Assembly: GCF_002994045.1 (NCBI RefSeq)
Contig: NZ_MQUC01000003.1
Location: 2,394,501-2,458,500 of the forward strand
Origin: Nonlabens agnitus
GTDB taxonomy: Bacteria; Bacteroidota; Bacteroidia; Flavobacteriales; Flavobacteriaceae
Length of the DNA stretch: 64,000 nt
Direction of reading: 5' to 3'
A model generated the notes under the pieces. The model was given only the letters and a program-made list of their open reading frames with translations, had not been told where the DNA came from and did no database searches. This document shows, piece after piece, positions 939 through 63,961 of the stretch. Within the stretch, counting starts at the first letter, position 1; each line of letters opens with the position of its first letter. Position numbers and translations under genes: made by a program.

Positions 939-954
939 CGCTTTCGCGAAAGCG
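939..954. repeat. Iterated palindrome copy 1 (intergenic)
   Basis: Perfect CGCTTTCGCGAAAGCG between the divergent AlbA_2 gene and the LpxH-like gene. The symmetry extends outward as TCG...CGA. Confidence 0.95.
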
Positions 955-1020
955 AACTACCTCTTAACACTATGGTAACTGTAGGCAAAATATGGGCCAT
1001 TAGATATGTTGCGGGATTGC

Positions 1021-1028
1021 TATCTTTG
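1021..1028 (+). promoter_or_regulatory. -7 promoter element for the LpxH-like gene
   Basis: TATCTTTG fits the Bacteroidota -7 consensus TAnnTTTG. It ends five bases before the ATG at 1034, so a transcript would be leaderless or nearly so. I see no convincing -33 TTG at the usual distance. Confidence 0.5.
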
Positions 1029-1033
1029 AACCC

Positions 1034-1792
1034 ATGCAGATTCCAGAAGGTAAAAAAATCTATTTTTCCAGTGACAATCATCTGGGAGCACCTACACAGG
1101 AGCTGAGCAAACCGCGTGAGAAAATATTCCTGCAATGGCTGGATATGGTTAAGGAGGATGCTGCCGCGATCTTTTTACTGGGTGATTTGTTTGATTTCTG
1201 GTTTGAGTACAAAACAGTGGTCCCCAAAGGACAGGTGCGTGTACTGGGCAAGCTAGCCGAAATACGCGATAGCGGTATACCCATTTATTTTTTTGTGGGT
1301 AACCATGACTTATGGATGTTCGGGTATTTTGAAGAAGAGCTGGGCATTCCCGTTTATCACGATCCACAGGTTTTCGAGTTTAACGACAAGAAGTTTTTTA
1401 TAGGTCATGGTGATGGTAAAGGACCTGGTGATAAGGGTTACAAACGCATGAAAAAGATTTTTACAAGTCCTTTTTTTCAATGGTGTTTTAAGTGGATCCA
1501 TCCAGATATAGGCATCAGGCTGGCGCGGCATCTTTCTGTAAAGAACAAATTGATCTCTGGCGATGATGATGCGGTTTTTTTGGGCGAAGAGAAAGAATGG
1601 CTGGCGCAATACGCCAAGCGTAAAACGGAGCAGGAGCATTTTGATTATTTCATTTTTGGCCACAGGCATCTACCTATGGAAATCTCCATTTCTGAGAATG
1701 CCACATACTACAATCTAGGTGACTGGATCTCTTATTATACTTATGGTGAATTTGGTGGGCAATCCTTCAAATTAAAGCGTTTTAAGGACTAA
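1034..1792 (+). CDS. lpxH: UDP-2,3-diacylglucosamine diphosphatase-like metallophosphoesterase
   Basis: This 252-residue protein has the ordered metal-binding blocks of the calcineurin-like phosphoesterases: SDNHLG (residues 13-18), GDLFDFWFEY (about 50-59), GNHD (about 90-93), a GHGDG block (about 124-128) and GHRHLP near the end. The FDFWFEY segment after the second block is typical of LpxH, the peripheral membrane enzyme that hydrolyses UDP-2,3-diacylglucosamine to lipid X in lipid A synthesis. Length matches LpxH (about 240-260). It is a single gene, with a probable leaderless start just after a TAnnTTTG element. Paralogous LpxH-like enzymes exist in this phylum, so the exact substrate is inferred. 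Confidence 0.85.
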   Translation: MQIPEGKKIYFSSDNHLGAPTQELSKPREKIFLQWLDMVKEDAAAIFLLGDLFDFWFEYKTVVPKGQVRVLGKLAEIRDSGIPIYFFVGNHDLWMFGYFEEELGIPVYHDPQVFEFNDKKFFIGHGDGKGPGDKGYKRMKKIFTSPFFQWCFKWIHPDIGIRLARHLSVKNKLISGDDDAVFLGEEKEWLAQYAKRKTEQEHFDYFIFGHRHLPMEISISENATYYNLGDWISYYTYGEFGGQSFKLKRFKD

Positions 1793-1938
1793 AGAGTCGG
1801 TCATCGGCCTTCTTTAACATTTCTATTGTGTTTTTAGTCTCATTTATTTACTTTTAATCTATAAATCCGTTTAGGTGATCATTACGTAGATTTTATCGGT
1901 CGAAACTTTTTACCTTTAATAGGAAAACACCCCTAAAA

Positions 1939-3765: not shown

Positions 3766-3767
3766 AG

Positions 3768-4178: not shown

Positions 4179-5855
4179 CCTAAGTTGTAAACTGGTCACA
4201 TTATTCCAGGTGTTTTCATCAATGGAATAAGCCATTTTAAACGTTTGATTTTCATTGATCAAACTTATTCTATCTCCTAAATTGAATCCTATCGCATTAT
4301 ATTTTACAGCAGAATTCTTTCCCGTAGTAATGCAGGCCTTGAGATGTTTTCCATCTGCGCCAACCGCTTTTGCATAACCAGTGTCCATTACGTTATCGGT
4401 AAAAAAAACGGGCGTCATATTACCAGGACCAAAAGGTTCCATTTGTTTCAGGATCCTGTAGAACTTAGGTGAGATCGATGTTAACGGCAGTTTCATGTCA
4501 ATAGTGACCTCTTCAGTGCGATCTTGATTTTTGATGGTGGCACAAACTACTTCTTCAAATCGCTTTTTGAAACCTTCATAGTGTTCCTCCTTTATGGTCA
4601 ATCCAGCCGCATATTTATGACCTCCATACTGTTCAATAAATTCAGCACATTGCTCTAGCGCATTATAAACGTCAAATCCTTTGACGCTACGTACACTGGC
4701 TGCCAGCTTATCGCCGCTTTTAGTAAAGACGACGGTAGGTCTGTAATAGGTTTCTATAAGTCTGGAAGCTACAATACCTATAACACCTTTGTGCCAGCTG
4801 GGATCATAAACGACCGTAGAGAAACCATTCTTCTCTTCATTGGCAATGATCTGATCCAGCGCTGCATCGGTGATCCATTTATCGGTTTCTTTGCGATCTG
4901 TGTTGTTTTGTTCAATAGCTTTGGCGAGCGTTATTGCTGTGTCAATATCTTCGGCAGTGAGTAATTCAACGGCGAACAAACCGTGTTTCATTCTTCCCGC
5001 AGCATTGATGCGTGGTGCAATGGTAAAAACAACATCTGTAGATGTGAGCGAGCTTTTGTTGAGCTGGGAAATGATCGCCTGAAATCCTGGTCGTGGACAG
5101 GTATTGATCACATGCAGCCCATGATAGGTTAGTATCCTATTTTCATCTACCATGGGAACGATGTCTGCGCCTATCGCGGTGGCTACTAGATCCAGATAAG
5201 GAATCAATATCTCAAAATCCCATCCTTTGACCTTTGCGATCGCCTGGCACAATTTAAAGCCAACACCACAACCGCACAATTCATCAAACGGATAGTTGCA
5301 ATCTGCTCGCTTTGGGTCCAATACAGCTACCGCATCTGGTAATTCCTTACCTGGCCTGTGGTGGTCACAGATAATAAAATCAATTCCCTTTTCTCGCGCA
5401 TAGGCCACTTTATCTATTGCTTTCACGCCGCAATCCAGGGCAATGATGAGAGTGAAATTATTGTCACTAGCATAATCAATCCCTTTGAAACTAACGCCAT
5501 AACCTTCATCATAACGATCTGGAATATAGGTCGATACTTGAGGATAAAAGCTCTGTAAAAAAGTGGACATGAGCGCAACGCTAGTCGTTCCATCGACATC
5601 ATAATCGCCATAAACCATGATGTTTTCACTGTTTTCTACAGCTTGCAGAATACGATCCACCGCAAGTTGCATATCTGCCATTAAGAATGGATCGTGCAAT
5701 TCTTTAAGAGATGGTCTGAAGAAGGATTTCGCTTTCGCGAAAGCGTCTATACCACGCTGCACCAGCAAACCCGCCAGCTCCGGATCAATATTGAGATCTT
5801 GGGCTAGTTGTTCCTGTTTTTCAGGATCTGGTGGTGGTTTGAGTGTCCAGCGCAA
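4161..5855 (-). CDS. recJ: Single-stranded-DNA-specific 5'-3' exonuclease RecJ
   Basis: The 564 residues match RecJ in length and motif order: motif I DYDVDG (84-89), the ALDCG block, motif III CDHHRPG, then the DHHA1 region with the GGH motif (QYGGHKYAAG) and a C-terminal OB-like part (MEPFGPGNMTPVF). RecJ degrades 5'-ended single strands during RecF-type recombination, base excision and mismatch repair. A copy of the iterated palindrome encodes DAFAKAKS near residues 38-44, in the less conserved N-terminal segment. recQ, a usual functional partner, lies about 3 kb away on the other strand. Confidence 0.95.
   Translation of the reverse strand: MRWTLKPPPDPEKQEQLAQDLNIDPELAGLLVQRGIDAFAKAKSFFRPSLKELHDPFLMADMQLAVDRILQAVENSENIMVYGDYDVDGTTSVALMSTFLQSFYPQVSTYIPDRYDEGYGVSFKGIDYASDNNFTLIIALDCGVKAIDKVAYAREKGIDFIICDHHRPGKELPDAVAVLDPKRADCNYPFDELCGCGVGFKLCQAIAKVKGWDFEILIPYLDLVATAIGADIVPMVDENRILTYHGLHVINTCPRPGFQAIISQLNKSSLTSTDVVFTIAPRINAAGRMKHGLFAVELLTAEDIDTAITLAKAIEQNNTDRKETDKWITDAALDQIIANEEKNGFSTVVYDPSWHKGVIGIVASRLIETYYRPTVVFTKSGDKLAASVRSVKGFDVYNALEQCAEFIEQYGGHKYAAGLTIKEEHYEGFKKRFEEVVCATIKNQDRTEEVTIDMKLPLTSISPKFYRILKQMEPFGPGNMTPVFFTDNVMDTGYAKAVGADGKHLKACITTGKNSAVKYNAIGFNLGDRISLINENQTFKMAYSIDENTWNNVTSLQLRLRDIH
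5730..5745. repeat. Iterated palindrome copy 2 (in recJ)
   Basis: Perfect 16-mer. On the recJ strand it is read as AFAKA. Confidence 0.95.
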
Positions 5856-5891
5856 AATGGTGTTTTAAGACATCAAAGATAAGTTCATTTA

Positions 5892-8495: not shown

Positions 8496-10655
8496 ATGAC
8501 AAAATTAGAATTACTCAAAAAGCACTTTGGGTACGACAGCTTTAGACCGCTTCAAGAAAAGATCATCGACAACGTTATTGACGGCAATGACCTGATGGTG
8601 GTAATGCCTACAGGTGGCGGTAAGTCCATGTGTTTCCAGCTGCCTTCACTCATTCTACCCGGTATTACGCTGGTGATTTCACCACTCATCGCATTAATGA
8701 AGGATCAGGTAGATGCGCTTAATGCAAATGGCATTGCAGCTGGATTTTTCAATAGCTCACAGGATACAGCAGACCAAGATGAGGTGATTAAAAAACTGCA
8801 AAGCAATCAGCTACAACTTCTATACGTGGCTCCAGAAAGCATCTCGCTGTTGCAAAATCATTTAAACGAAGTCAAAATCTCACTTATCGCTGTGGATGAG
8901 GCACACTGTATCTCAACATGGGGACATGATTTTAGGCCTGCCTATACGCAACTTTCCTACCTTAAGAAATCCTTTCCAGAAGCCAGTCTCATTGCACTCA
9001 CCGCAACCGCTGACCGTGCCACTCGAGCCGATATAAAAAAGCAACTGGCTATCGACAATGCAAGAGAGTTTGTCGCGTCGTTTGACAGGCCCAATATCAT
9101 GCTGGAAGTGCGTCCCGGCAACAACCGCATGACGCAAATCTTTAGGTTTTTGAACCATCATAAAGAAAGCTCAGGGATCATTTACTGTTTGAGCCGCAAG
9201 AGCTGCGAGAATATTGCAGCAAAGTTGAAGGGACAAGGGTTCTCTGCTGCTGCCTACCATGCTGGATTGGAAAATCGCTTTCGCGAAAGCGTACAAGAAC
9301 AATTCATAAAGGACGAGGTCAAGATTGTGGTGGCGACGATCGCCTTCGGGATGGGAATCGATAAGTCCAACGTTCGTTTTGTCATCCATTACAACATGCC
9401 TAAAAACGTCGAAGGCTACTATCAAGAAATAGGACGTGCCGGTCGTGACGGTCTTGAATCGCAAGCTTTACTGTTTCACAGCTATGCAGACGTGATCCAG
9501 CTGCGCAAGTTTGCAGAAGGTAGCGGGAATAGCGAGGTGCAGATCGCAAAACTGGAACGAATGAAACAATTTGCCGAGGCGCTCACCTGCCGCAGGCGCA
9601 TGTTGTTGTCCTATTTCAATGAGTTTCTGGAACAAGATTGTGGCAACTGCGATGTTTGCCTCAACAAGCCAGATTTTATGGATGGTACACGACAGGCACA
9701 AATGGCTTTGAGTGCCGTGTACCGCATGGGTCAAAGAGCTACTCTTAATTTGCTGGTAGATGTGTTACGAGGTGCCAATAATGCTGGCGTCATGGAAAGT
9801 GGCTTTGATAAGATCAAGACCTATGGTGCAGGAAAAGAAACTTCATGGAACGACTGGCAACAGTATATCATCCAATTGATCAATCAGGGATTACTGGAGA
9901 TCGCGTTTCATGAAAACAACCATTTGAAACTTACTCCTGAATCTGAAAAGGTATTGTTTGAGGACAAGCCCGTTAGACTAGCAGTAATTCCCAAGTCAGA
10001 GCAGCGAGCTGCCGCAGCGCAATTACAGGAATTGCCCGAAGAGGTTCACAAGGAGTTGTTCAAAGAATTAAAAGAATTGCGTTTAAGCCTTGCCAAGGAA
10101 GAAAATCTGGCGCCGTATATGGTTTTTAGTGACGCAACACTTAAGGATATGGCAGCGCGATTACCACTAGATGATAACGAGTTTGCAGATATTACTGGAG
10201 TTGGTGTCCATAAACATGATAAATACAGTCAACAATTTTTAAAAGTAGTAGAACAACACAAAGAATCTAGACCATCTAGCTTTATCTATCGTGCGGCAAC
10301 TAAAAAGAAAAAGAAGAAACGCTCCAATATCAGCGGATTATCAGATACGGTGATGGAGAGCGTGGAAGCTTTCTGGGCTGGAAAATCCATTGAAGAAATT
10401 GCAGAGGAACGTTCCCTAAAAGCAGATACCATTCTATCACACCTAGGTAAACGTTATGCATCACACCGTGATGTAGAAGTGGATCCATTACTGGATGGTG
10501 TTGACCTAGAAAAGCTGGAAAACATGCTGCCCAACTTCAAAAAGGACCGTTCGATGAAACCGGCTTTTGACTACTTTGATGGTAAAATAGGTTATGGAAA
10601 ATTGCACCTGGGAATGGCCGTTGTTGAAACTAGAACCATGGAACCACAGCGATGA
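8496..10655 (+). CDS. recQ: ATP-dependent DNA helicase RecQ
   Basis: The 719 residues follow the RecQ plan: motif 0 (FGYDSFRPLQ), Walker A TGGGKS (39-44), DEAH (134-137), the motif TATADRATR, and motif VI QEIGRAGRDG. A Zn-binding part follows with C in ALTCRRRM and CGNCDVC, then the RQC winged helix, an HRDC-like region and a C-terminal helix-turn-helix (AGKSIEEIAEERSLKADTI). RecQ unwinds DNA 3'-5' in recombination and fork repair. The iterated palindrome encodes RFRES in AYHAGLENRFRESVQEQF, just before the conserved VVATIAFGMGID motif, without changing local length relative to family norms as I remember them. The next gene overlaps by 4 bases (ATGA). Confidence 0.96.
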   Translation: MTKLELLKKHFGYDSFRPLQEKIIDNVIDGNDLMVVMPTGGGKSMCFQLPSLILPGITLVISPLIALMKDQVDALNANGIAAGFFNSSQDTADQDEVIKKLQSNQLQLLYVAPESISLLQNHLNEVKISLIAVDEAHCISTWGHDFRPAYTQLSYLKKSFPEASLIALTATADRATRADIKKQLAIDNAREFVASFDRPNIMLEVRPGNNRMTQIFRFLNHHKESSGIIYCLSRKSCENIAAKLKGQGFSAAAYHAGLENRFRESVQEQFIKDEVKIVVATIAFGMGIDKSNVRFVIHYNMPKNVEGYYQEIGRAGRDGLESQALLFHSYADVIQLRKFAEGSGNSEVQIAKLERMKQFAEALTCRRRMLLSYFNEFLEQDCGNCDVCLNKPDFMDGTRQAQMALSAVYRMGQRATLNLLVDVLRGANNAGVMESGFDKIKTYGAGKETSWNDWQQYIIQLINQGLLEIAFHENNHLKLTPESEKVLFEDKPVRLAVIPKSEQRAAAAQLQELPEEVHKELFKELKELRLSLAKEENLAPYMVFSDATLKDMAARLPLDDNEFADITGVGVHKHDKYSQQFLKVVEQHKESRPSSFIYRAATKKKKKKRSNISGLSDTVMESVEAFWAGKSIEEIAEERSLKADTILSHLGKRYASHRDVEVDPLLDGVDLEKLENMLPNFKKDRSMKPAFDYFDGKIGYGKLHLGMAVVETRTMEPQR
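9276..9291. repeat. Iterated palindrome copy 3 (in recQ)
   Basis: Perfect 16-mer, read in frame as RFRES inside the second helicase domain. Confidence 0.95.
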
Positions 10656-11514: not shown

Positions 11515-11703
11515 CTAATGACAACCACAATCACCATCGCCGCAATTATTGGAATTATAACGTGACGGGAATAATTTTTTTCTAAACAGCCACACCACGG
11601 CTGCAATCAATAGCAAAATAACGATACCGTACTGCAGATAGATTTGTAATTCGCTTTCGCGAAAGCGAACTAATAACATGAAATGTTGCAACAAGACGTT
11701 CAT
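11515..11703 (-). CDS. FeoB-associated Cys-rich small membrane protein
   Basis: The 62-residue protein has one hydrophobic helix (YLQYGIVILLLIAAVVWLF), a basic stretch (RKKLFPSR) and a Cys-rich tail ending CGDGDCGCH. This matches the small FeoB-associated proteins found downstream of feoB. The ATG at 11703 overlaps the feoB stop as TAATG, so an in-frame extension into feoB is unlikely to be used. The tail may bind iron or help FeoB at the membrane; that role is inferred. The iterated palindrome encodes RFRES just before the membrane helix. Confidence 0.85.
   Translation of the reverse strand: MNVLLQHFMLLVRFRESELQIYLQYGIVILLLIAAVVWLFRKKLFPSRYNSNNCGDGDCGCH
11652..11667. repeat. Iterated palindrome copy 4 (in the FeoB-associated gene)
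   Basis: Perfect 16-mer, read as RFRES. Confidence 0.95.
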
Positions 11704-15713: not shown

Positions 15714-16508
15714 ATGATTGTAAGCGGCACCATTCGTAAAATGCAAACAGAACTTCAGGAAACCGTTCAATACTATATGGTTTTTAGGGATGAGTTTGTG
15801 CATGCCAACCAGTTACTCGACCATCATATTACGATCAAACACGTGGCAAACGAGTGCCTCAATTGCGGGCTGGACAAGAAAATATGGCGTCAGGGATTTT
15901 GTTACGACTGTTTTTCCAGCATACCTCAAGCGGGTGATTGGATCATGAAACCAGAACTGAGCCGCGCCCATCTGGATGAGGAAGATCGCGATCTGGAATA
16001 TGAAAAGAAAGTACAACTCAAGCCTCACATCGTTTATTTGGCAAACTCCAGCAACATCAAGGTAGGCGTCACTCGTCAGACCCAAATTCCTACTCGATGG
16101 ATCGATCAAGGTGCCCACGAGGCCGTTGCGATTCTCGAGGCACCTAATCGTTACCTCGCCGGAATCACAGAGGTAGCTTTAAAAGAAAAAGTTGCCGACA
16201 AGACCAATTGGAGAAAAATGCTCACTAATGATATTGAGGATGTTGATTTATTACGCTTTCGCGAAAGCGTGCTCGACCTCATCCCAGAAGAAGCCCGAGA
16301 GTTTATTCTACCCGTAAAGGAAGAAACGCATATTCATTTTCCCGTACTGCAATACCCAAAAAAAGTATCCAGCGTCAATCTTTCAAAAACACCTGAACAT
16401 TCTGGAAAGTTGATAGGTATCAAAGGTCAATACTTCATTTTTGAAAGCGGCAAAGTCATGAACATACGCAGCCATGAAGGCTTTGTGGTGGATTTGAAGG
16501 TGGACTAA
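15714..16508 (+). CDS. DUF2797 family protein with a Zn-ribbon-like Cys cluster
   Basis: The 264-residue protein carries CLNCGLDKKIWRQGFCYDC near residues 46-64, a four-Cys cluster typical of DUF2797, then LANSSNIKVGVTRQTQIPTRWIDQGA, the family's core. The core resembles GIY-YIG-like folds, a similarity I recall only loosely. Function is unknown. The iterated palindrome encodes RFRESVL near residue 182. A TATTTTTG element at 15668-15675 may be its -7 site. Confidence 0.8.
   Translation: MIVSGTIRKMQTELQETVQYYMVFRDEFVHANQLLDHHITIKHVANECLNCGLDKKIWRQGFCYDCFSSIPQAGDWIMKPELSRAHLDEEDRDLEYEKKVQLKPHIVYLANSSNIKVGVTRQTQIPTRWIDQGAHEAVAILEAPNRYLAGITEVALKEKVADKTNWRKMLTNDIEDVDLLRFRESVLDLIPEEAREFILPVKEETHIHFPVLQYPKKVSSVNLSKTPEHSGKLIGIKGQYFIFESGKVMNIRSHEGFVVDLKVD
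16254..16269. repeat. Iterated palindrome copy 5 (in the DUF2797 gene)
   Basis: Perfect 16-mer, read as RFRES. Confidence 0.95.
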
Positions 16509-37829: not shown

Positions 37830-37920
37830 TTAACAGCCTTTCAAAGGTCTTGTTAAAAGATGTTTTCGCTTTCGCGAAAGCGAGGAATGAACAAGCTTAT
37901 TTGCAAGTGACAAGAATGAC
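37830..37920. other. ctaB upstream spacer
   Basis: Short non-coding stretch before the repeat array. It contains palindrome copy 12 and no clear promoter element for ctaB. Confidence 0.5.
37867..37882. repeat. Iterated palindrome copy 12 (intergenic)
   Basis: Perfect 16-mer upstream of ctaB. Confidence 0.95.
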
Positions 37921-42714: not shown

Positions 42715-42750
42715 CGCTTTCCTGTCTGCCGACAGGCAGGCGCGAAAGCG
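42715..42750. repeat. Iterated palindrome copy 14, split by a second palindrome
   Basis: CGCTTT (42715-42720), then the 20-base palindrome CCTGTCTGCCGACAGGCAGG with one mismatched pair (42721-42740), then CGCGAAAGCG (42741-42750). Removing the inner 20 bases restores a perfect 16-mer. It lies between ftsX and the DUF3098 gene. Confidence 0.92.
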
Positions 42751-46970: not shown

Positions 46971-46986
46971 CGCTTTCGCGAAAGCG
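46971..46986. repeat. Iterated palindrome copy 15 (intergenic)
   Basis: Perfect 16-mer in the divergent region; symmetry extends to TTCGC...GCGAA. Confidence 0.95.
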
Positions 46987-52618: not shown

Positions 52619-55600
52619 ATGGCAGAAAAAGATACATCTAACACTACCCAACTGGACTCAGGAACCTATGAGATCATCCAGAGTCGTTTGCTCAAGCAAA
52701 AAAATGACTTGCAGCAGCGTCTGGCAGCACTCAATGACGAGCGTAAAAAAGTCTTCGGTTCGCTAGAGACACGGCTTATTGCAAATGATCGCGTCAATAC
52801 AGAGAATAACTGTATCGCTCGTGATATTGTGACCATAGGCAATTACAGCCTCTTTGGGTACAACGTACATTTTGGCCTGCGTACAGAGATCAAGTTGAGC
52901 GACGTTTTTAATGTCTATGAGTTTGATCGTGATGGTGAGGCTGGTGATGCATTACGCTTTCGCGACCTGCCTGCCGGCAGGCAGGAAGCTGGTCAAGGTC
53001 TAGAAATCATTTCGGATCCTATCTTTCAAACCGATTTTGAAAACCTTTACAAATACTACCGCAATACCATATTCTCCAAGTTTGCCATTGTTGGGAATTA
53101 CTTGCACATGGTGTTTCAGCTTAGTGATTCCGTGACTGATATCAAGACCTTTAAATGGTTGATTAAGGAAAACGAACTACAATACATAGACAATCGCAGC
53201 GAGCACGAGTATAGATTTCCGCCGCAATATGGATTTCAATGGAAGGAAGCCGGACGTGACAATCAGCGATCTGGAAGGCATGGTCACGTGTCTATTTTGG
53301 ACAAGGTTTTTGTAGAAACCATAGGTGGTGACCTCACGATTAAGGTCGAGGATAATACAGATGATGGTCAAGGGATTTACCGCGAGGACGTAGAACATCG
53401 CGACCAGACACTGGACGATGGTCAGTACCGCTATGCAGATTTAGGCAACTTGATAATTCTTGAGATCAAACCCTTCCAGGAAGAACCACGCTATTTTGTC
53501 TACAATCACAAGATCAAAGAAGTTCAAAAAATAGACAGCATTGCGCAGGCAGCTGTACTGCTTCCAGACGAGCAAGGAATTATATTTCCTAGCGGTTATT
53601 ACCTACAAACTGGAGAATACAACGTATTTCCCAGCGACGCTGGCAAACTAAAGTTTGAGCAAAAGATAGCGTCACCTAATGGCGAGGATCATTTATATGT
53701 ATTCTACAATGCCGCTCAAGGGTTGTATGCATTGATGTCGTATAACGTGATTGACCAGACGGTCAAGACACCTATAATCTGCAGTGGTTTTACGATTTTG
53801 GAACGTGGTGAGCTGTGTTACTTTAGAGCTGGAGAAGAGCAGACTAAGCATCACATCATGCAAATATGGCAAACACCCTATTTGAAAGGTGATATCATGC
53901 CGTCTGAGCATCAAGATACTATGCTCTATAAAATTGGTAACAAAGACATTGTAAAAGCCATGGCCGAAGCCAATGAGCTTTTGACGCTATTAAACAAGGA
54001 AGATAGTTATGCCGGTTTGTACGATGATATCGCTCGTACCTCTAAGGATATTCTCGATGCCTATTACTGGTTGTCTGAAGATGAAACCCAGCAAATCAAC
54101 ATACCGCTTCTTGAAATCAACAAAGCGTCTAACGCAGCGATTGATGAGTTTGAGAAAGTCAAGCAAATGCGCAAACAAGCCGCTGCCGACACTAAAGATA
54201 TTTCAAAAAAAGCCGAAGCACTTTTCAGCAAAGTAAAAAGTACGTCGTTCAAATCCATTAATGATTTTGTAGAGCTTTTGACCCAACTGCGCAGTTTGCG
54301 CGGTGAGGCGATAGGTCTATATGAAATACGATATGTAGATACCGATTTCATCAAGGGAATTGAGGAGCAGATCGTTGAGCAGAATGAGGTGATATCACGT
54401 CGTGCGGTAACTTTCTTGCTGGATGATAAAGCACTAGCTCCATACCACGATGCGGTTGCCCAAAAGCAAAAAGCACTAGACGACACTAAAAAAGTCATCG
54501 GGATTAAAAACCTTGAAAAAGAGGTCAATCAGATCGCTGAAGATCTTGAGCTACTCATAGAAATAGTTTCTAACCTAGATATTGAGGACACCTCGCATTC
54601 AACCAAAATAATTGAGAACATCTCTTTGATTTTTGCGACCATCAATCAGGTAAAGGCTGCTATTAAGAATAAGATTAAAACCGTAGGTAAAAAAGAAGCA
54701 CAAGCCGATTTTGCAGCACAGTTAAAGTTGATCGATCAGAGTATCATCAATTATCTAGATATTGCCAACACACCAGAAAAATGTGATGAATTCCTGACCA
54801 AAATTTCTATTCAGCTAGAAGAGCTGGAAGGAAAGTTTGCAGATTATGACGAGTATATCACAGAGATTATTGCTAAACGTGAAGAAGTCTATGCCGCTTT
54901 TGATAACCGTAAGAGCAGCCTGGTAGAAGCACGTAATAAGAAAGCTATTTCTTATCAAAATGCTGCAGAACGCATCATCAAAGGTGTCCAAAAACGAGCG
55001 CAATCACTAGATAGCATCACAGAAATCAATGGTTATTTTGCCAGCGATTTAATGATCAATAAGGTGCGAGACATTGTCGCGCAATTAAAGGAGCTGGACG
55101 ACGCTGGTAAAGCGGAAGCTATTGAAACCGCCCTAAAAGTAGCTCGTGAAGATGCCTTGAGAAAACTTAAGGATAAGAACGAGCTTTATGAAGATGGTGA
55201 TAATATCATCAAGCTGGGTAAGCACAAATTTGGCGTCAATAAACAACAGCTGGATTTAACCATCGTCTTCAAGGATAATGCGCTATTCTACCATCTTACT
55301 GGTACAGATTTTTATCAAGAATTACACAATGAAATCCTGACACAGTCTAAAGGAATCTGGAATCAAGAACTGGTTTCAGAAAACGCACAGGTATATCGAT
55401 CTGCCTACCTAGCCTACTCAATTTTCAAAAATGGAGATAAAGAAGTCCTCAGGATGATGAGTCCGGCAGACTTACTAGTTCACGTTCAAGAAATAGCTGG
55501 TGGGAACTATTCTGGTGGTTATGTAAAAGGTGTTCATGATCATGATGCCGCACAGATCTTAAGTGTGCTTTTACATAAGGACCATGATTTAGGATTACTC

Positions 55601-57514
55601 ACCTATGCGCCACAAGTACGTGCACAAGCGCAATTTTTCTGGAATAGTCTTGATGATCAACGACGCCTCCATCTTAACCGCACGCTAAAAAGTGCTGGTG
55701 AGGTTTTATCTGTTTTTCCAGATAGTAAAGAGTATAATTTTATTATCGACGAGCTGACAGAAGAGATTTTCAATGTTTCGAAATTGATTGATAATCTATC
55801 AGTAGCTAGATATTTATTTGACGAGCTCAAGGATAATGATCACTTTACGGTGAGCCACAGCGCCATTCAATTAAAGGAAGCTTTTGAAAAGAAAATCAAA
55901 GCTCAAAATGCCGATTTGAAATTCAAGAAAAGTCTGGAGACCTGCGATAATGAAAAAGATAAAATAGAATTAGTGAGACACTGGGTTTCCGCTTTCGCGA
56001 AAGCGAACTCAAAACAAGCTTTATTGCCTTACATAGACGAGTGTGTGGCAAATATTCTTTACGGTGAGTTGACGGCAGATAAAACCGTAGCCGTATCACC
56101 GGAAGAAACCATCCAAAACTTAAAAGGAGCGCATGCAACGATAGAAGAAGGAACTTTCCAATTCAATTATCATGATTTTGTAGCAACACTAGAGCATTTT
56201 ACAACGATAAAAGTACCTGCATACGAGACTTTTAGAGCCGCAAAACATCAAGTAACTGAGGAGCTGAAAGAATCCTTGCGATTAGAAGAATTCAAGCCAC
56301 GCGTGTTGAGCTCGTTTGTACGTAATAAATTAATCGACCAGGTATATTTCCCATTAATAGGAGACAATCTTGCCAAACAATTAGGTACGGTAGGCGATAC
56401 CAAACGTACCGACCGCATGGGGTTGTTGCTATTGATATCACCACCAGGTTACGGTAAAACGACCTTGATGGAGTACATGGCAAACCGACTGGGATTGATT
56501 TTTATGAAAATTAATGGGCCAGCAATAGGTCACGATATCACATCAGTTGATCCAGAAGCAGCGTCAAATGCAGCCACAAGAGAAGAACTCAAGAAACTGA
56601 ATCTTGCCTTTGAAATGGGTGACAACGTGATGTTGTATCTGGATGATATTCAGCACTGTAATCCAGAGTTTTTACAAAAATTCATCAGCCTGTCTGATGG
56701 TACGCGTAAGATTGAAGGCGTTTTCAATGGCAAGCCCAAAACTTATGACCTGCGCAGTAAGAAATTTTGCATAATCATGGCTGGTAATCCATATACTGAA
56801 AGTGGAGATAAATTCCAGATTCCAGATATGCTCGCCAACCGTGCCGATATCTACAACCTAGGAGATATCATAGGCGATACAGCGCATTTATTTGAGCTGA
56901 GTCTGATAGAAAATGCGTTGACCAGCAATCCTGTGCTGCAACAATTGAGTAATAAACATTTTGATGATGTGTACGCTCTGATTGATCGGGTTCAAAATGG
57001 AGCTTCCGACAATGAACTAAAAGGCAACCATAGCAATCAAGAAATTGCAGATTATGTAGCTGTAATTGAAAAAGTGTTAAAGATTAGAGACACGGTTCTC
57101 AAAGTCAATGAAACTTATATCGCCAGCGCAGGAATGGAGGATACGTATCGTACAGAACCTAGTTTTAAACTACAAGGATCTTATCGAGACATGAATAAAC
57201 TGGTCGCAAAGGTTGTCCCAATCATGGATGATAAGGAATTACAAACCTTACTACTATCACACTATGAAAGTGAATCACAAACCTTAACCAGCGCCGCTGA
57301 AGCAAATCTTTTGAAATATAAAGAACTAGTCAACACCATCACTCCTGAGGAACAGCAACGATGGGAAAATATCAAGAAGATTTTTGCAAAAAACAACAAA
57401 CTCAACGGCCTAGGCGGACAGAATCAAATGTCACAGGTCTTGAGTCAGATGATGGATTTTACTGAAAATCTAGAAGGTATCAAAGAAGTCCTGCGTAAAG
57501 GATTGTCGAAATAG
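52619..57514 (+). CDS. Giant AAA-type ATPase of the PspA/flotillin cluster ('DNA repair ATPase' type)
   Basis: The 1631 residues open with a coiled coil (IQSRLLKQKNDLQQRLAALNDERKKVF). A large beta-rich part (about 60-480) follows, then extended coiled coils (about 500-880). A globular stretch leads to an AAA core: Walker A PPGYGKTT (1275-1282), Walker B LYLDDIQH (1339-1346, with D1342 and D1343), a sensor region FCIIMAGNPYTESGDKFQIPDMLANRAD and a helical lid. Public annotations often call such proteins DNA repair ATPases; I know of no direct proof. Next to PspA and flotillin it more likely remodels membrane-associated assemblies (inference). It contains two palindrome copies, one split by a second palindrome and still in frame. 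Confidence 0.82.
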   Translation: MAEKDTSNTTQLDSGTYEIIQSRLLKQKNDLQQRLAALNDERKKVFGSLETRLIANDRVNTENNCIARDIVTIGNYSLFGYNVHFGLRTEIKLSDVFNVYEFDRDGEAGDALRFRDLPAGRQEAGQGLEIISDPIFQTDFENLYKYYRNTIFSKFAIVGNYLHMVFQLSDSVTDIKTFKWLIKENELQYIDNRSEHEYRFPPQYGFQWKEAGRDNQRSGRHGHVSILDKVFVETIGGDLTIKVEDNTDDGQGIYREDVEHRDQTLDDGQYRYADLGNLIILEIKPFQEEPRYFVYNHKIKEVQKIDSIAQAAVLLPDEQGIIFPSGYYLQTGEYNVFPSDAGKLKFEQKIASPNGEDHLYVFYNAAQGLYALMSYNVIDQTVKTPIICSGFTILERGELCYFRAGEEQTKHHIMQIWQTPYLKGDIMPSEHQDTMLYKIGNKDIVKAMAEANELLTLLNKEDSYAGLYDDIARTSKDILDAYYWLSEDETQQINIPLLEINKASNAAIDEFEKVKQMRKQAAADTKDISKKAEALFSKVKSTSFKSINDFVELLTQLRSLRGEAIGLYEIRYVDTDFIKGIEEQIVEQNEVISRRAVTFLLDDKALAPYHDAVAQKQKALDDTKKVIGIKNLEKEVNQIAEDLELLIEIVSNLDIEDTSHSTKIIENISLIFATINQVKAAIKNKIKTVGKKEAQADFAAQLKLIDQSIINYLDIANTPEKCDEFLTKISIQLEELEGKFADYDEYITEIIAKREEVYAAFDNRKSSLVEARNKKAISYQNAAERIIKGVQKRAQSLDSITEINGYFASDLMINKVRDIVAQLKELDDAGKAEAIETALKVAREDALRKLKDKNELYEDGDNIIKLGKHKFGVNKQQLDLTIVFKDNALFYHLTGTDFYQELHNEILTQSKGIWNQELVSENAQVYRSAYLAYSIFKNGDKEVLRMMSPADLLVHVQEIAGGNYSGGYVKGVHDHDAAQILSVLLHKDHDLGLLTYAPQVRAQAQFFWNSLDDQRRLHLNRTLKSAGEVLSVFPDSKEYNFIIDELTEEIFNVSKLIDNLSVARYLFDELKDNDHFTVSHSAIQLKEAFEKKIKAQNADLKFKKSLETCDNEKDKIELVRHWVSAFAKANSKQALLPYIDECVANILYGELTADKTVAVSPEETIQNLKGAHATIEEGTFQFNYHDFVATLEHFTTIKVPAYETFRAAKHQVTEELKESLRLEEFKPRVLSSFVRNKLIDQVYFPLIGDNLAKQLGTVGDTKRTDRMGLLLLISPPGYGKTTLMEYMANRLGLIFMKINGPAIGHDITSVDPEAASNAATREELKKLNLAFEMGDNVMLYLDDIQHCNPEFLQKFISLSDGTRKIEGVFNGKPKTYDLRSKKFCIIMAGNPYTESGDKFQIPDMLANRADIYNLGDIIGDTAHLFELSLIENALTSNPVLQQLSNKHFDDVYALIDRVQNGASDNELKGNHSNQEIADYVAVIEKVLKIRDTVLKVNETYIASAGMEDTYRTEPSFKLQGSYRDMNKLVAKVVPIMDDKELQTLLLSHYESESQTLTSAAEANLLKYKELVNTITPEEQQRWENIKKIFAKNNKLNGLGGQNQMSQVLSQMMDFTENLEGIKEVLRKGLSK
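52955..52990. repeat. Iterated palindrome copy 17, split by a second palindrome (in the ATPase gene)
   Basis: CGCTTTCGCGA (52955-52965), then the perfect 20-base palindrome CCTGCCTGCCGGCAGGCAGG (52966-52985), then AAGCT. It is read in frame as RFRDLPAGRQEAG. Frame continuity implies a 21-base gain or a compensated change. Confidence 0.9.
55990..56005. repeat. Iterated palindrome copy 18 (in the ATPase gene)
   Basis: Perfect 16-mer, read as AFAKA in SAFAKANSKQ. Confidence 0.95.
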
Positions 57515-58926: not shown

Positions 58927-59000
58927 TTTACAAAAGTAAGCTCATGAAATCTCGCAGAAAGGTTTTAGCGGTCATTTAAACTGATACATTCTTCCTATTG

Positions 59001-60470
59001 TTAACTATTAGAGCCTTGGGCAACTAAATCTATGGTGGCTTGAAATATGGTTTTTCGCTCCATTTTTGATTTGAGATAGGCATAAAAGCTCATTGCAAAA
59101 ATATCTTCACGGTCAACTGGTTTCCAGATGAAGGCTTGTTCTACTTTATTCTTGAAAGTTTTTTGTGTCGCCAGATAGGGCTCGTCAAAATAATTACGAA
59201 GCAGTTTCATAAAGGTAATTACTCGTTCCTCCTTTATACCAAGCAGTGAATTCTTATAACGCTTTTTAAAGCTGCGCATTTTAGACTCTACGAGATCTGG
59301 TTGACTCAGTTCCATATAGATCAAGATCTCCAATATATTTTTGTACAGAACAAACAACAGGCCTTCTTTTCTCTCATAAAATCGATCGGTATGCTTGAGC
59401 TCGTTGAGTTTCCTGCGTGCGGCGTTAAATTCTGTTTGTTGAAATAAAAGCATTGCGTGAACTACCACAATTCTTGTAGTGGGCTTCTTTAAATGGGTAA
59501 TCAATTGCATTGCTTCTATAGGCCTGTTGGTATAGTTAAAGTTCAAAGCCTTCAACAATAAAACACGTTCTCTAAATTGTGACTCAAAAGCACCTCGTTG
59601 CTTTAACAACTGCACTTCCAGTTCTGTTAGAGTTTTTTGAGATGCTATAAAGTCCCTATTTCTAAAATAGGTTCCTGACATAAGGTAGAGAATCTCACAA
59701 TGATAGTACAGATGTTTATCTGCAAGATGCTTCTTGACTTTAACCAGTTCAAAGACGTGGTTCATGAAGAGTGATACACCAGCATAATCTGATTTAAGAG
59801 TTGCTGCATCTGTCACGATGTTCATGATCTGAAACAGCGTTTTAAACGACAAGCTTGCATCTATTTGTAGATCATATTCTTCTAGTTTTTCTTTTATCAG
59901 ATCAAAGATGTTTGCTGGATTCTGGGTAAGTTCTCTCTTTAGAATCGCATACAGCTTCACCCATTTGATTTCAGTTTCATAAAGCGACTGGTTACGGTTG
60001 TAAGCTGCAATTAATTGGTCTAGATCGCATTTAGGATCTAGATGCGCGTATTGTACATAGGTATGATAGCACTCTTGAAGGATGGCATAGGATTCCAATT
60101 TAGAAGACGATCTAATCGCTTTATGGAGCGTTTTAAAACCCATGGAGAACTGCTCCTTTTCCAAAAATATTCTGGCGGCTAGCAACAATTTGAGCAATTG
60201 TAATTCTTCCAATGATTCGTTGCTAAAACCACGACTGGCCGTAAAGTCTATCAGGTTTTCCTTCAACCTGTTTTTTAGGGCATTCAGCGCGTTTTTATTC
60301 CCTTTACCATAGATTTTTAGGTCCAGATCACGGCGTACGCCAGACCTTATGAGGTCAAACAACATGATGTTTTTTACATCAGATCGCTGGTTTTTCGCTT
60401 TCGCGAAAGCGATAAAATCTTCAGCTTCATCACTTTGCATCGATCTAATCAATTCTATTAAATCGTTCAT
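59001..60470 (-). CDS. Large helical protein of unknown function
   Basis: The 489 residues appear all-helical with repeated Leu-rich pairs that could be TPR-like (for example YTNRPIEAMQLITHLK, FNAARRKLNELKHTDRFY, LFVLYKNILEILIYMEL). No catalytic motif or membrane segment is seen. It is divergent from the YiaA/B gene across about 130 bases. The iterated palindrome encodes IAFAKAKNQ near residue 23. I do not recognise the family. Confidence 0.7.
   Translation of the reverse strand: MNDLIELIRSMQSDEAEDFIAFAKAKNQRSDVKNIMLFDLIRSGVRRDLDLKIYGKGNKNALNALKNRLKENLIDFTASRGFSNESLEELQLLKLLLAARIFLEKEQFSMGFKTLHKAIRSSSKLESYAILQECYHTYVQYAHLDPKCDLDQLIAAYNRNQSLYETEIKWVKLYAILKRELTQNPANIFDLIKEKLEEYDLQIDASLSFKTLFQIMNIVTDAATLKSDYAGVSLFMNHVFELVKVKKHLADKHLYYHCEILYLMSGTYFRNRDFIASQKTLTELEVQLLKQRGAFESQFRERVLLLKALNFNYTNRPIEAMQLITHLKKPTTRIVVVHAMLLFQQTEFNAARRKLNELKHTDRFYERKEGLLFVLYKNILEILIYMELSQPDLVESKMRSFKKRYKNSLLGIKEERVITFMKLLRNYFDEPYLATQKTFKNKVEQAFIWKPVDREDIFAMSFYAYLKSKMERKTIFQATIDLVAQGSNS
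60396..60411. repeat. Iterated palindrome copy 19 (in the helical protein gene)
   Basis: Perfect 16-mer, read as AFAKA. Confidence 0.95.
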
Positions 60471-60602
60471 TACAAATTCCTTTTTTATTGGCTTTTAGTG
60501 TTTTAGGTATTGGATAACTACATTCCAATCGTACATAATCCACTAAAATAGGTCATTCCAAACGTTTATGAGGTCGCAACTTTGACCCATCAAAACAAAA
60601 AC

Positions 60603-61372: not shown

Positions 61373-61404
61373 AACCGGCTTGTGCCTAATGACAAGCCTG
61401 TTTT
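61371..61404 (+). terminator. Terminator after the YiaA/B operon
   Basis: GGCTTGT, eight-base loop, ACAAGCC, flanked by AAAAC and GTTTT so the symmetry continues. Confidence 0.75.
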
Positions 61405-61416
61405 GATGTGTGAAAG

Positions 61417-61443
61417 CGACCTTTTCTTTGAAAGGGTCGTTTT
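61417..61443. terminator. Second hairpin before the convergent ArfB gene
   Basis: GACCTTTT / AAAGGGTC stem, then GTTTTC. It may back up the first hairpin. Confidence 0.55.
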
Positions 61444-61457
61444 CTAGTTTTTAAGAT

Positions 61458-61856
61458 CTAGCCGCGATATTTCCTATTTGCCTTTTTCTCGCTGTGCTTC
61501 TTTTTATCGTTCAAGCGCTTGCGCTTTACAGAAGCTGGCACGACTCGTTTCCTGCGCACTTTTTTGGGCTTGCGAGCCTTGTTCAAGACGTCTATAAGCT
61601 TCTGGAAGACTCTTTCTTTATTGGTGGCTTGACTGCGAGTGTCTTGGGAGCTTAGCTGCAAGCGTCCATCTTTGGTAAGTCGGTTTTTTAAGGCCTCCAG
61701 GATTCTCTCGTGTTCCGCTTTCGCGAAAGCGATACTTTGCTCCACATCAAAATCCAATTGCACTCGAGTGGCTACCTTATTGACATGCTGCCCGCCAGCG
61801 CCACTGGAAGTTGTTGCGGTGTAATTTACCTCACGATGCAGCTGGTCGATGTCCAT
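61458..61856 (-). CDS. arfB: Ribosome-rescue peptidyl-tRNA hydrolase ArfB
   Basis: The 132 residues carry the catalytic GGQ (21-23) in SSGAGGQHVNKVATRVQLDFD, a release-factor-like core with DTRSQATNKE, and a Lys/Arg-rich C-terminal tail (RKPKKVRRKRVVPASVKRKR) that enters the empty mRNA channel of stalled ribosomes. ArfB frees peptides on non-stop complexes. The palindrome encodes IAFAKAEHE. It is adjacent to the DUF4301 gene, with no spacing. Confidence 0.94.
   Translation of the reverse strand: MDIDQLHREVNYTATTSSGAGGQHVNKVATRVQLDFDVEQSIAFAKAEHERILEALKNRLTKDGRLQLSSQDTRSQATNKERVFQKLIDVLNKARKPKKVRRKRVVPASVKRKRLNDKKKHSEKKANRKYRG
61716..61731. repeat. Iterated palindrome copy 20 (in arfB)
   Basis: Perfect 16-mer, read as AFAKA. 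Confidence 0.95.
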
Positions 61857-63410
61857 CTATGCCTGGTGTGCGGGCTTGAGTAAGTCGTTGACGGTCTTGA
61901 CAGGGTTGAAAGTAATAAGCGGCACCTCTACAAAAATGGTATTCCAGTGCGCCATGGCACCATTCCATAATCCTGGAAGTTCTTGGGCTTTTAGTTCATG
62001 ACCCATTCTGGATTTATGGGTGATAAATCCGGTTTCAAGGTCTCTAAATTGCGACAGGTCAAACTTATTGCCTTGAAAATCACGCACGCCACACACCAGA
62101 TCTACCGGATTAAAGTGCGTGCAATTGGCCGCGATTTTACGCTGACGGTAATCATCGCTATCCACTTGTGCACTCTCGACGATTTGCAGGCTGCTCTGAC
62201 CAAATTCATTGGTTACCCAAAACGGGCCACCACCAGGCTCACCTTCATTTTTTACCATACCGCAAACCCTCAACGGCCTGTTTAACGCCTCAATCAACGC
62301 TTCACGTTTGTACTGTTTGGTGTACTTATGGTAATCTCGCGGCAAGCGGCGCAACAATTGATCGCTTATAAATTGTTCCATCTCATCAAAAGCACCATGG
62401 TCAACGGAATTTTTTTGAAGTTCATTCAAGTAGGCAAAGGCTTTTTCTTGAAGCTTTAGCAATACTCCAGCAAGCATTTTCTTGTATACGCTCACATCTT
62501 CATCCATCGTGGAAACGGTCACATTATCGATGTTCTTGATAAAGATAATGTCTGCATCCTGATCGTTAAGATTCTCAAGTAAAGCACCATGACCAGCAGG
62601 TCTAAAGAACAGCTTTCCATCTTTGTCAACGATAGGTTGATCCTGCATATCGACGGCTATGGTGTCCGTACTTGGCTTTTGATAGGAGAATGATATTTCA
62701 TAATTCTTACCGGTTTTTGCTTCTACAGCCTCTTCAATTCTGTTAAATTCTTTGACAAAATGGTTTTGATAAGCCGGTGCGATAGTAAAATGTAAACAAG
62801 CTACATTTCTAGTAGCCGCATATCCAGAAGCCTCATGTAAATGCTCTTCAAAAGCAGTCACTTTGTGATCGCCATAACTGTGAAACGGAACTAAACCTTT
62901 AGGCATCGCACTAAAATTAAAGCCATCCTTGAACAACATTTTACGTACAAAACGCTCCTTTTTATCTCGGTCAGTGAGGCTTTGCCAGTTATCTACATCC
63001 TTTTTTAATGAGTTGATGACCGCATCATAGAATGGGAACTTTTCAATCCCAACAAAAAAGGTAAATAGGTCTCTAGCATTTTTGCGGTTGATAAAGGAGT
63101 TGATGGATTCTACACTGGCATCGTATTCTTGAAGGAATTCATGCAAAAACTTAAACATTCTGGTAGCGGCACCACTAGCTGGAACAAATTTGAGAATATC
63201 AAGCTGCTCTCTTTTGGATTCATAAAAATCCACGTATTCCTTAATTTCTGATTCTGGAATACGTACGATCCCATCGCCTACCGTGGCAGCCTTCTTAAGT
63301 TTCACCGTTGGAAATCCATTGACAAATCTGCTTATTTGTTTTTGCAGGGTTTCTTGAGAGATTCGTTTTTCCTTAAGTTGTTCCTTTTGTATGGCGGTGA
63401 GTTCTATCAT
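61857..63410 (-). CDS. DUF4301 family protein
   Basis: The 517 residues contain FVPASGAATRMFKFLHEF (about 77-94), FFRPAGHGALLENLNDQDADIIFIKNIDNV (about 268-297) and GGGPFWVTNEFGQSSLQIVESAQVD. The SGAATRM and GHGALLENLN pieces resemble sugar-nucleotidyltransferase motifs, so it may activate a sugar (inference). The family is typical of Bacteroidota. Its ATG overlaps the NadR-type kinase stop as ATGA. Confidence 0.85.
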   Translation of the reverse strand: MIELTAIQKEQLKEKRISQETLQKQISRFVNGFPTVKLKKAATVGDGIVRIPESEIKEYVDFYESKREQLDILKFVPASGAATRMFKFLHEFLQEYDASVESINSFINRKNARDLFTFFVGIEKFPFYDAVINSLKKDVDNWQSLTDRDKKERFVRKMLFKDGFNFSAMPKGLVPFHSYGDHKVTAFEEHLHEASGYAATRNVACLHFTIAPAYQNHFVKEFNRIEEAVEAKTGKNYEISFSYQKPSTDTIAVDMQDQPIVDKDGKLFFRPAGHGALLENLNDQDADIIFIKNIDNVTVSTMDEDVSVYKKMLAGVLLKLQEKAFAYLNELQKNSVDHGAFDEMEQFISDQLLRRLPRDYHKYTKQYKREALIEALNRPLRVCGMVKNEGEPGGGPFWVTNEFGQSSLQIVESAQVDSDDYRQRKIAANCTHFNPVDLVCGVRDFQGNKFDLSQFRDLETGFITHKSRMGHELKAQELPGLWNGAMAHWNTIFVEVPLITFNPVKTVNDLLKPAHQA

Positions 63411-63961
63411 AATAATTGATCTATAGCAGTGATGGCGTGCTTCAATCTGCGGTCGCCCAACCCAGAAATTTTAGAATAAGGTTGACCAAAATCATTGAGG
63501 GCTTGCTCAAATCTATCAAACATTTCCTTACGGTCATCGGGTTTATCTCTTAAATCGTCCTTAACCCATGGTGTGTCAATGTCCAGCAGCAAGTAATGAT
63601 CATAACTGGATTTGTGCAATGCTTCCAGCAATTCTTGAGGTGCTTTGTCAAAATAAGCTATGGAATAGACATAGGTCTCCAGTATGTCTGTATCGCAAAA
63701 GAGTATTTTTTTCGCTTTCGCGGAAGCGATATTCTCTGCAGCTCGTTGTCCTACAGCAATGGGCAGGATGTCCTCAAATGTGCAGATATGACCGTCCTTA
63801 TCAAAAAGCTCCTGAAGATAATCCCGAGCAAACTCTGCCACCTGTGGCTCACGATAGTACGCTGCAAGCTGATGAGCTAACGTCGTTTTGCCAGTACTTT
63901 CAGGACCGTAGAGCACGACTCTTAAACCGTCAAAATGGGTTTGTCTAGGTATTTTATCCAT
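63407..63961 (-). CDS. NadR-type nicotinamide riboside kinase-like ATPase
   Basis: The 184 residues form one P-loop kinase: Walker A GPESTGKTTL (19-28), VAEFARDYLQEL, FCDTDILETYVYSIAYF and a lid-like segment LRDKPDDRKEMFDRFEQAL. This matches the ribosylnicotinamide kinase domain of NadR without its adenylyltransferase domain. It would phosphorylate imported nicotinamide riboside for NAD salvage. It overlaps the end of a probable pnuC by 40 bases, which supports that role. A one-mismatch palindrome encodes IASAKAKK. Confidence 0.88.
   Translation of the reverse strand: MDKIPRQTHFDGLRVVLYGPESTGKTTLAHQLAAYYREPQVAEFARDYLQELFDKDGHICTFEDILPIAVGQRAAENIASAKAKKILFCDTDILETYVYSIAYFDKAPQELLEALHKSSYDHYLLLDIDTPWVKDDLRDKPDDRKEMFDRFEQALNDFGQPYSKISGLGDRRLKHAITAIDQLL
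63713..63728. repeat. Iterated palindrome copy 21 (one mismatch, in the NadR-type gene)
   Basis: CGCTTTCGCGGAAGCG, the same single change as copy 6. Read as ASAKA on the gene strand. Confidence 0.9.

What the first reader, a model, noticed from the sequence alone, without database searches (positions are those of the whole stretch)
939..63728. A 16-bp palindrome occurs 21 times in 64 kb, mostly inside genes
CGCTTTCGCGAAAGCG is present in 15 perfect copies, 4 near-perfect copies (19469, 21156, 24072, 63713) and 2 interrupted copies (42715, 52955). A random 64-kb sequence would be expected to hold about 0.00001 copies of a given 16-mer. Seventeen lie in coding sequences and four between genes. 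Depending on frame it gives RFRES, SLSRKR or AFAKA, and because it is palindromic both strands give the same peptides. This recalls HIP1 of cyanobacteria, a highly iterated palindrome, but with a different and longer sequence.
Basis: seen in the sequence. Interest (0 to 1): 0.85.

Follow-up and report, generated by a model that had tools for sequence, protein, structure and literature searches.

The report
Evenly spaced genome-wide palindrome with arms
Marine bacteria of the genus Nonlabens, and two related genera, carry hundreds of copies of one exact palindromic DNA word, spread a few thousand letters apart through their chromosomes and found in some phages too, and kept in place by evolution; this points to an undescribed system that reads DNA genome-wide.

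Summary
In detail: 15 perfect, 4 near-perfect and 2 interrupted copies in the window; shuffles average 0.14. The genome, Nonlabens (Flavobacteriaceae), has 676 copies of the 16-mer and 762 of its 14-bp core. Of 397 family genomes, only Nonlabens, Dokdonia and one unnamed genus exceed 13 copies.

Tools added four things. (1) The core is rigid: one-mismatch forms vary almost only at the outermost base and one inner position. (2) In the listed parts of three genomes, sites are never closer than 602 bp and pairs under 1 kb are strongly depleted. (3) Positions are kept: at 74-75% identity 29 of 39 aligned cores are identical, against 2-3% of background 14-mers; diverged phages mostly keep shared sites. 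(4) Each site has dyad-symmetric arms, C-poor on the 5' side and G-poor on the 3' side, in coding and intergenic DNA.

Most likely this is a DNA-level element for an unidentified symmetric DNA-binding machine that maintains or organises resident DNA. The HIP1-methyltransferase analogy is weakened: neither methylase family tested is universal.

The parts
939..954 (.). perfect 16-bp palindrome, intergenic
   Evidence: outside ORFs
5730..5745. perfect palindrome in recJ (AFAKA frame); site at the same codons in the 6 Nonlabens and in G234, relic in Dokdonia, absent in 22 of 22 other genomes; lost in Nonlabens G008
9276..9291 (.). perfect palindrome in recQ (RFRES frame)
11652..11667 (.). perfect palindrome, intergenic, beside feoB
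16254..16269 (.). perfect palindrome in a DUF2797 gene; site at the same codons in G234 (outer base differs)
19469..19484 (.). variant CGCTTTCGCGGAAGCG in an AsmA-family gene; the variant core is kept in G007, G020, G019 and G018 (G008 has another base there)
21156..21171 (.). copy with 2 mismatches in a gene with HPPK and deoxynucleoside kinase domains
22322..22337 (.). perfect palindrome in ORF 21846-22424
24072..24087 (.). copy with altered outer base in an Nfu/NifU-type gene; the variant is kept in G007, G020, G019 and G018, lost in G008
28037..28052 (.). perfect palindrome in an outer membrane efflux (OEP) gene, near its start
32794..32809 (.). perfect palindrome, intergenic
37867..37882 (.). 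perfect palindrome, intergenic
41121..41136 (.). perfect palindrome in a leucyl-tRNA synthetase gene
42715..42750 (.). palindrome interrupted by a 20-bp second palindrome (42721-42740), intergenic; uninterrupted in G020, interrupted likewise in G007
46971..46986 (.). perfect palindrome, intergenic
49041..49056 (.). perfect palindrome in ORF 48405-49112
52955..52990 (.). palindrome interrupted by CCTGCCTGCCGGCAGGCAGG (52966-52985), inside ORF 52619-57514; uninterrupted in G007, interrupted likewise in G020
55990..56005 (.). perfect palindrome in the DUF3686/AAA ATPase gene 52619-57514
60396..60411 (.). perfect palindrome in ORF 59001-60470, near its start
61716..61731 (.). perfect palindrome in a short ORF 61458-61856
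63713..63728 (.). variant CGCTTTCGCGGAAGCG in ORF 63407-63961 (AAA_28)

Best explanation
The palindrome is the centre of a genome-wide array of two-fold symmetric DNA recognition sites. Each site is a nearly invariant 14-bp core, GCTTTCGCGAAAGC, in a 16-bp palindrome, flanked by about 18-25 bp arms that avoid C on the 5' side and G on the 3' side. Shown: rigid core, depletion of close pairs, kept positions in chromosomes and mostly in phages, symmetric skewed arms, absence without a gap in the two genes where several genera could be compared, and no preference for one kind of intergenic context. Inferred: a dimeric or otherwise symmetric DNA-binding machine, not yet identified, loads at the site and acts on a few kilobases of DNA around it (nucleoid organisation, protection or repair of resident DNA). 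Every stretch of a few kilobases then needs one site, and a redundant neighbour is lost.
For: Rigidity: in 458 kb of the own genome, 85 perfect copies and 27 one-mismatch copies, of which 17 differ at the outermost base, 8 by one change at position 6 and 2 at position 2. Coverage: in 94 of 676, 50 of 857 and 100 of 408 sites (the consecutive ones that the tool listed) of Nonlabens, Dokdonia and G234, minimum spacings are 768, 602 and 1319 bp; pairs under 1 kb are 2, 2 and 0 against 16.4, 10.2 and 12.8 expected. Position: core identical at 12 of 15, 8 of 10 and 9 of 14 aligned sites at 74-75% identity, against 3.4, 2.3 and 2.5% of background 14-mers. Phage stretches at 64-72% identity keep shared cores, with a single core base changed in two of them. 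Arms: 96 of 103 own sites are skewed in the expected direction, against 42% of 1232 random places. The arms are not an extended hairpin: complementarity is close to that expected from base frequencies, except next to the core in the own genome. No paired change inside the core among the two-mismatch copies, and intergenic contexts are used in proportion to their length. At the recJ and DUF2797 sites, orthologues in genera without the word carry other codons and no gap.
Against: No protein has been found. A duplicated ParB/Noc-type binder is not supported. The strand-asymmetric arms are unusual for a simple dimer site. One lytic phage of the host (P12024S) has no site, so the site is not indispensable for all DNA in the cell. 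The phage contigs were fetched because they hold a site, which biases the conservation seen there, and one shared phage site is altered in the core at 90% identity (L153/L156). In the Nonlabens list the overall spacing variation is not lower than chance (P 0.11), because of several long gaps.
Confidence: 0.45

Rival explanations
1. Chi-like recombination hotspot working in both directions: AddAB entering at a break from either side meets the site and loads RecA on the G/T-rich 3'-ending strand of the arm.
For: The density (one 14-mer core per 4.2 kb) is close to E. coli Chi (1008 in about 4.64 Mb, passage). RecA prefers TGG repeats, and TG-rich DNA near Chi is thought to stabilise its filament (passages). 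The 3'-ending strand of each arm is the C-poor, G/T-rich one. T preference with a 3-nt phase outside ORFs (Dokdonia P 0.011, Nonlabens P 0.069). The AddB-type nuclease domain PF12705 is present in 30 of 30 genomes. The lytic phage without sites encodes its own ERF and YqaJ recombination proteins. Some phages carry several sites.
Against: Known Chi words are short and not palindromic (recalled). AddB of 10 site-bearing against 10 other genomes shows only 3 diagnostic columns of 990, with exceptions allowed. The presence of AddB throughout the family does not explain the restriction to three genera. GT-rich islands near E. coli Chi have been ascribed to codon usage (reference titles seen), although here the skew flips at the site and is also intergenic.
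Confidence: 0.2
2. DNA uptake (self-recognition) sequence for natural transformation.
For: Hundreds of copies, reported even spacing and an excess in non-coding DNA are features of uptake sequences too (passages); uptake words are shared by related species (titles).
Against: Uptake sequences are not palindromes, and by the same paper's account evolve gradually and are less evenly spaced than a compaction element would be; here near-misses are nearly absent. Phage genomes mostly keep the sites at shared positions, which uptake selection does not predict.
Confidence: 0.12
3. HIP1-type word created and kept by methylation-linked mismatch repair.
For: A highly iterated palindrome mostly inside genes, with deviations concentrated at the outer positions, as in HIP1.
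Against: PF01555 methylases in 13 of 25 and PF00145 in 15 of 25 bearing genomes; G006, G007 and G009 have neither. A 14-bp target is far longer than methylase sites (recalled). One-off forms inside the core are rare. Regular spacing is not predicted by a repair bias (inference).
Confidence: 0.08
4. RNA hairpin (terminator, pause or processing site) in transcripts.
For: By its sequence the 16-mer can fold as a hairpin, and it is enriched between genes.
Against: No paired changes inside the core; double changes at the outer pair 1/16 do occur (1, 1 and 5 copies in Nonlabens, Dokdonia and G234). No extension of pairing into the arms beyond the first base. Contexts in proportion to length (30 tandem, 13 divergent, 9 convergent sites). 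Many sites inside genes.
Confidence: 0.04
5. Mobile or inserted repeat (MITE-, REP- or integron-like).
For: Identical word repeated hundreds of times; a different 20-bp palindrome is found inserted into it.
Against: No gap at recJ and DUF2797 in orthologues that lack the site. Sites are shared at the same position between species and partly between genera. In the parts of five Nonlabens genomes that align to the window, sites missing from the window occur only where the window copy is interrupted.
Confidence: 0.02

Closest known systems
HIP1 and alternate HIPs of cyanobacteria (PMC4390886; abstract and sections 2.3 and 2.6 read)
   Same: Palindrome repeated across a genome, largely in genes, with variation concentrated at outer positions.
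   Different: 14-16 bp instead of 6-8; lower density; few one-off forms inside the core; skewed arms; no universal methylase in the two families tested.
DNA uptake sequences of Neisseriaceae and Pasteurellaceae (PMC1939737; passages read)
   Same: Hundreds of copies, even spacing reported, excess in non-coding DNA.
   Different: Palindromic, rigid, with few near-misses, and found at kept positions in phages.
Chi sites (AddAB/RecBCD; passages of PMC3763553 and PMC6343036 read, otherwise recalled)
   Same: Similar density; G/T-rich 3'-ending strand beside the site.
   Different: Long, palindromic, close pairs depleted, position-conserved.
parS and Noc-binding sites (recalled)
   Same: About 16-bp near-invariant palindrome of the form TTTC..GAAA.
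   Different: Hundreds of sites without regional restriction in the sample; no extra Noc-like ParB in most bearing genomes; half-sites one base closer together than in parS (recalled sequence).

Membership tests
HIP (HIP1 / alternate HIP) | highly over-represented palindrome | tested here: met
   676 copies, backwards control 0
HIP (HIP1 / alternate HIP) | cognate orphan methyltransferase in genomes with the word | tested here: not met
   PF01555 13 of 25, PF00145 15 of 25; G006, G007 and G009 neither; D12 and other families not tested
HIP (HIP1 / alternate HIP) | one-off forms common | tested here: not met
   27 one-mismatch against 85 perfect copies; 25 of the 27 at the outer base or position 6
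DNA uptake sequence | over-represented, evenly spaced, clade-specific | tested here: met
DNA uptake sequence | non-palindromic word that evolves through graded near-misses | tested here: not met
DNA uptake sequence | raises DNA uptake in competent cells | not testable with these tools
   needs transformation assays
Chi | AddAB or RecBCD present | tested here: met
   AddB-type PF12705 domain in 30 of 30 genomes
Chi | AddAB specificity changed together with the word | tested here: inconclusive
   3 diagnostic AddB columns of 990 (10 against 10 genomes); 0 of 576 in RecJ and 1 of 320 in ParB; AddA could not be compared, its gene was cut in most stretches
Chi | short, non-palindromic, orientation-dependent | tested here: not met
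   the word is a perfect 16-bp palindrome
parS / Noc-binding site | cognate extra ParB-family CTPase | tested here: not met
   one ParB in 7 of 9 site-bearing genomes; G019 and G018 also have longer ParB-like proteins, as do some genomes without the word. Recognition helix as usual in Dokdonia, small differences in Nonlabens
Mobile palindromic element | insertion relative to empty sites | tested here: not met
   no gap at recJ and DUF2797 in genomes without the site

The most novel reading that the evidence does not exclude
A new genome-wide DNA element of about 52-66 bp, with an invariant palindromic core and strand-skewed arms that show T preference phased every three bases. It marks resident DNA every few kilobases in three flavobacterial genera for an undescribed symmetric DNA-maintenance or recombination machine, and phages of these hosts maintain it in their own essential genes to live under that machine.
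Probability: 0.4. Interest if true: 0.92.

Novelty: new variant of a known kind. Interest (0 to 1): 0.82.

Why it matters
A rigid 14-bp word kept at hundreds of fixed places, even at the cost of rewriting protein sequence and also in phages, means that something reads it as DNA. The purpose of iterated genomic words such as HIP1 is still debated.

Tried and rejected
ParB/Noc-type reader: 7 of 9 site-bearing genomes have a single ParB of usual size, and the recognition helix is not altered in Dokdonia. Extended hairpin: arm complementarity is close to expectation (next to the core in the own genome it is 0.64 against 0.47). Analogous palindromes in other genera: in 20 genera at 20 kb each, no palindrome of 12 bp or more reaches 3 copies; six 10-mers, mostly AT-rich, reach 3, and one stretch has a non-palindromic internal repeat. 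Seven stretches that I chose from site-bearing genera are all detected, but stretches with only 1-2 sites would be missed (3 of 19 full own stretches and 6 of 10 G234 stretches have 2 or fewer), so the test is strong only for a Nonlabens-like density. Chi specificity in AddB: inconclusive; the script stopped at AddA, which was cut in the stretches. Phage database: 3 records and 8, not informative. Literature: searches gave no paper on this word. The term palindrome has 0 occurrences in the 20 of 25 papers listed; one search lists 10 papers that hold the 10-mer TTTCGCGAAA, none about a flavobacterial repeat by title and start of abstract; two searches found 0 papers. The library holds only open-licence papers. 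The small clusters in other genera that I read proved to be metal-resistance islands and were set aside as passengers.
Full report
WHAT IS THERE. The whole genome, 3.216 Mb in 4 contigs, holds 676 copies of the 16-mer and none of the word read backwards; the 14-bp core occurs 762 times. In one search all 23 genomes of the genus (own included) have 180-737 copies; of the 36 others one has 4 and 35 have none. In one search (397 family genomes) only Nonlabens (4 genomes, own included), G250 (630) and G234 (153) exceed 13 copies; 48 of the 397 have at least one. In one search (296 genomes of the phylum, without G250 and G234) no genome but the own has more than 4 copies of the 14-mer. The genus is Nonlabens because G008, of the same genus, has a contig of the same length as a named Nonlabens contig; G250 matches Dokdonia sinensis SH27 in the same way. 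These names rest on contig lengths.

RIGID CORE. In 458 kb of the own genome (window plus 20 stretches) there are 85 perfect copies, 27 with one mismatch, 5 with two, 5 with three and 9 with four. Of the 27, 17 differ at the outermost base, 8 by the change that gives CGCTTTCGCGGAAGCG, and 2 at position 2. In the Dokdonia sample (80 kb) all 6, and in the G234 sample (200 kb) all 12, one-mismatch forms differ at the outermost base.

EVEN COVERAGE. The tool lists only the first places of a genome. For those, 94, 50 and 100 consecutive sites in Nonlabens (16-mer), Dokdonia and G234 (14-mer), minimum spacings are 768, 602 and 1319 bp. Pairs under 1 kb number 2, 2 and 0, where uniform placement gives 16.4, 10.2 and 12.8. 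The coefficient of variation is low in Dokdonia (P 0.008) and G234 (0 of 5000 simulations) but not in the Nonlabens list (P 0.11), which has several gaps of 14-34 kb. Counts per 20 kb in 22 pieces of the own genome are under-dispersed (variance/mean 0.53, P 0.037).

POSITIONS ARE KEPT. Against the parts of five other Nonlabens genomes that align to the window (32-61 kb each), the core is identical at 18 of 19, 11 of 14, 12 of 15, 8 of 10 and 9 of 14 aligned sites at 95, 80, 75, 75 and 74% identity; background 14-mers are identical in 58, 7.1, 3.4, 2.3 and 2.5%. The variant core at 19469 is kept in four of the five. In recJ the site lies at the same codons in the 6 Nonlabens (three with one mismatch) and in G234 (one mismatch). 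Dokdonia has a four-mismatch form that I read as a relic, and the other 22 genomes have no site, with other codons and no gap. Not all Nonlabens keep it: G008 has lost it. A DUF2797 site is shared with G234. The recQ, AsmA and ORF 21846-22424 sites are not shared with the other genera in which the gene was found, and for the remaining sites the comparison was incomplete or absent. So sites form and decay by substitution where this could be seen, change protein sequence, and are partly older than the genera. A recJ tree places the three genera in one weakly supported group (81/89) together with two genomes without the word, G024 and G069; it needs two changes of state, and one origin is not excluded.

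ARMS. Flanks avoid C on the 5' side and G on the 3' side. In 126 own sites the 17 bases before the palindrome hold on average 1.30 C and 4.67 G, and the 17 after it 4.49 C and 1.29 G; 97 Dokdonia sites behave alike; the skew fades after about 25 bp. It is present in coding sites of all three frames (weakest in the LSRK frame, 14 sites) and outside ORFs: 96 of 103 sites have the expected sign, against 42% of 1232 random places. It is weaker in phages (23 of 31) and G234 (34 of 40), present in metal islands (22 of 26), and not seen in viral contigs of 50% GC or more, where the word is probably chance (2 of 6); 9 of 14 copies in other named taxa have the expected sign. Opposite arm positions are not paired beyond expectation except next to the core in the own genome. 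T is preferred at -6, -9 and -12, also outside ORFs. A three-base phase is supported in Dokdonia (P 0.011) and only suggestive in Nonlabens (P 0.069) at sites without an ORF of 100 aa; I looked for it after seeing the profile.

PHAGES AND ISLANDS. One search gives 41 viral stretches with the word. I tested 10 proteins of 4 of them: L168 has terminase, portal and tail sheath genes, L178 portal and tape measure genes, L185 a baseplate hub gene and L153 an integrase; one L153 protein had no hit. Related stretches at 64-72% identity keep the core at the shared position, with a single core base changed in L175 and L163; at 90% identity one site is altered in L156. All were fetched because they hold a site somewhere. 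The lytic Nonlabens phage P12024S has none (nearest 4 mismatches). The small clusters in other genera whose stretches I read lie mostly in copper/heavy-metal resistance islands with sites at recurring places, which I take for passengers from site-bearing donors (the output was cut).

CONTROLS. In 20 other genera, 20 kb each, no palindrome of 12 bp or more reaches 3 copies, while seven chosen stretches from site-bearing genera are detected; thin arrays such as that of G234 could be missed.

MECHANISM. The symmetry, the rigidity of the core, the lack of paired core changes and the indifference to intergenic context point to a symmetric protein that reads DNA. Depletion of close pairs suggests that each site serves a few kilobases. 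Phage retention suggests that the benefit arises inside the cell. I therefore favour a DNA-maintenance machine, at 0.45. The arm skew and the density leave a bidirectional Chi-like role as the main rival. Methylation, uptake, RNA and mobility are less likely for the reasons given under rivals. No reader protein was identified; an extra ParB and two methylase families are unlikely to be it.

KNOWN WORK. Searches found no paper on this word. The nearest described elements are HIP1 (PMC4390886), uptake sequences (PMC1939737) and Chi.

Noticed in passing
window 42721-42740 and 52966-52985; L205 13353; L255 5083; L260 554; L211 7324: A second 20-bp palindrome (CCTGYCTGCCGRCAGGCAGG) is found mostly inserted inside copies of the 16-mer. 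The 52966 insertion is shared with G020 (80% identity) but absent from the closer G007 (95%), which suggests clean loss or replacement.
   Followed up: partly
L217 16851 and 16963 (G234): Two copies of the same palindrome sit in tRNA-like sequence next to a tRNA cluster; ARAGORN calls no tRNA there.
   Followed up: partly
L273-L292: Copper/heavy-metal efflux islands (CusA-, OEP- and CopA-like genes) in several flavobacterial genera carry the palindrome at recurring spacings of about 933 and 2446-2481 bp.
   Followed up: partly
L288 and L291, OEP gene: In these islands the usual signal-peptide site (AFAKAQ) appears to be replaced by a longer in-frame insertion.
   Followed up: no
G000 C4 about 298-353 kb: Gaps of 34 and 20 kb in the array of 16-mers, possibly acquired islands.
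   Followed up: no
AddB alignment, G000 residues 282, 321, 536: Three columns separate site-bearing genera from others (K to G, S to A, F to Y), each with at most one exception per side.
   Followed up: partly
L331 (phage P12024S): The lytic host phage without sites encodes ERF and YqaJ recombination proteins and a DNA methyltransferase.
   Followed up: no
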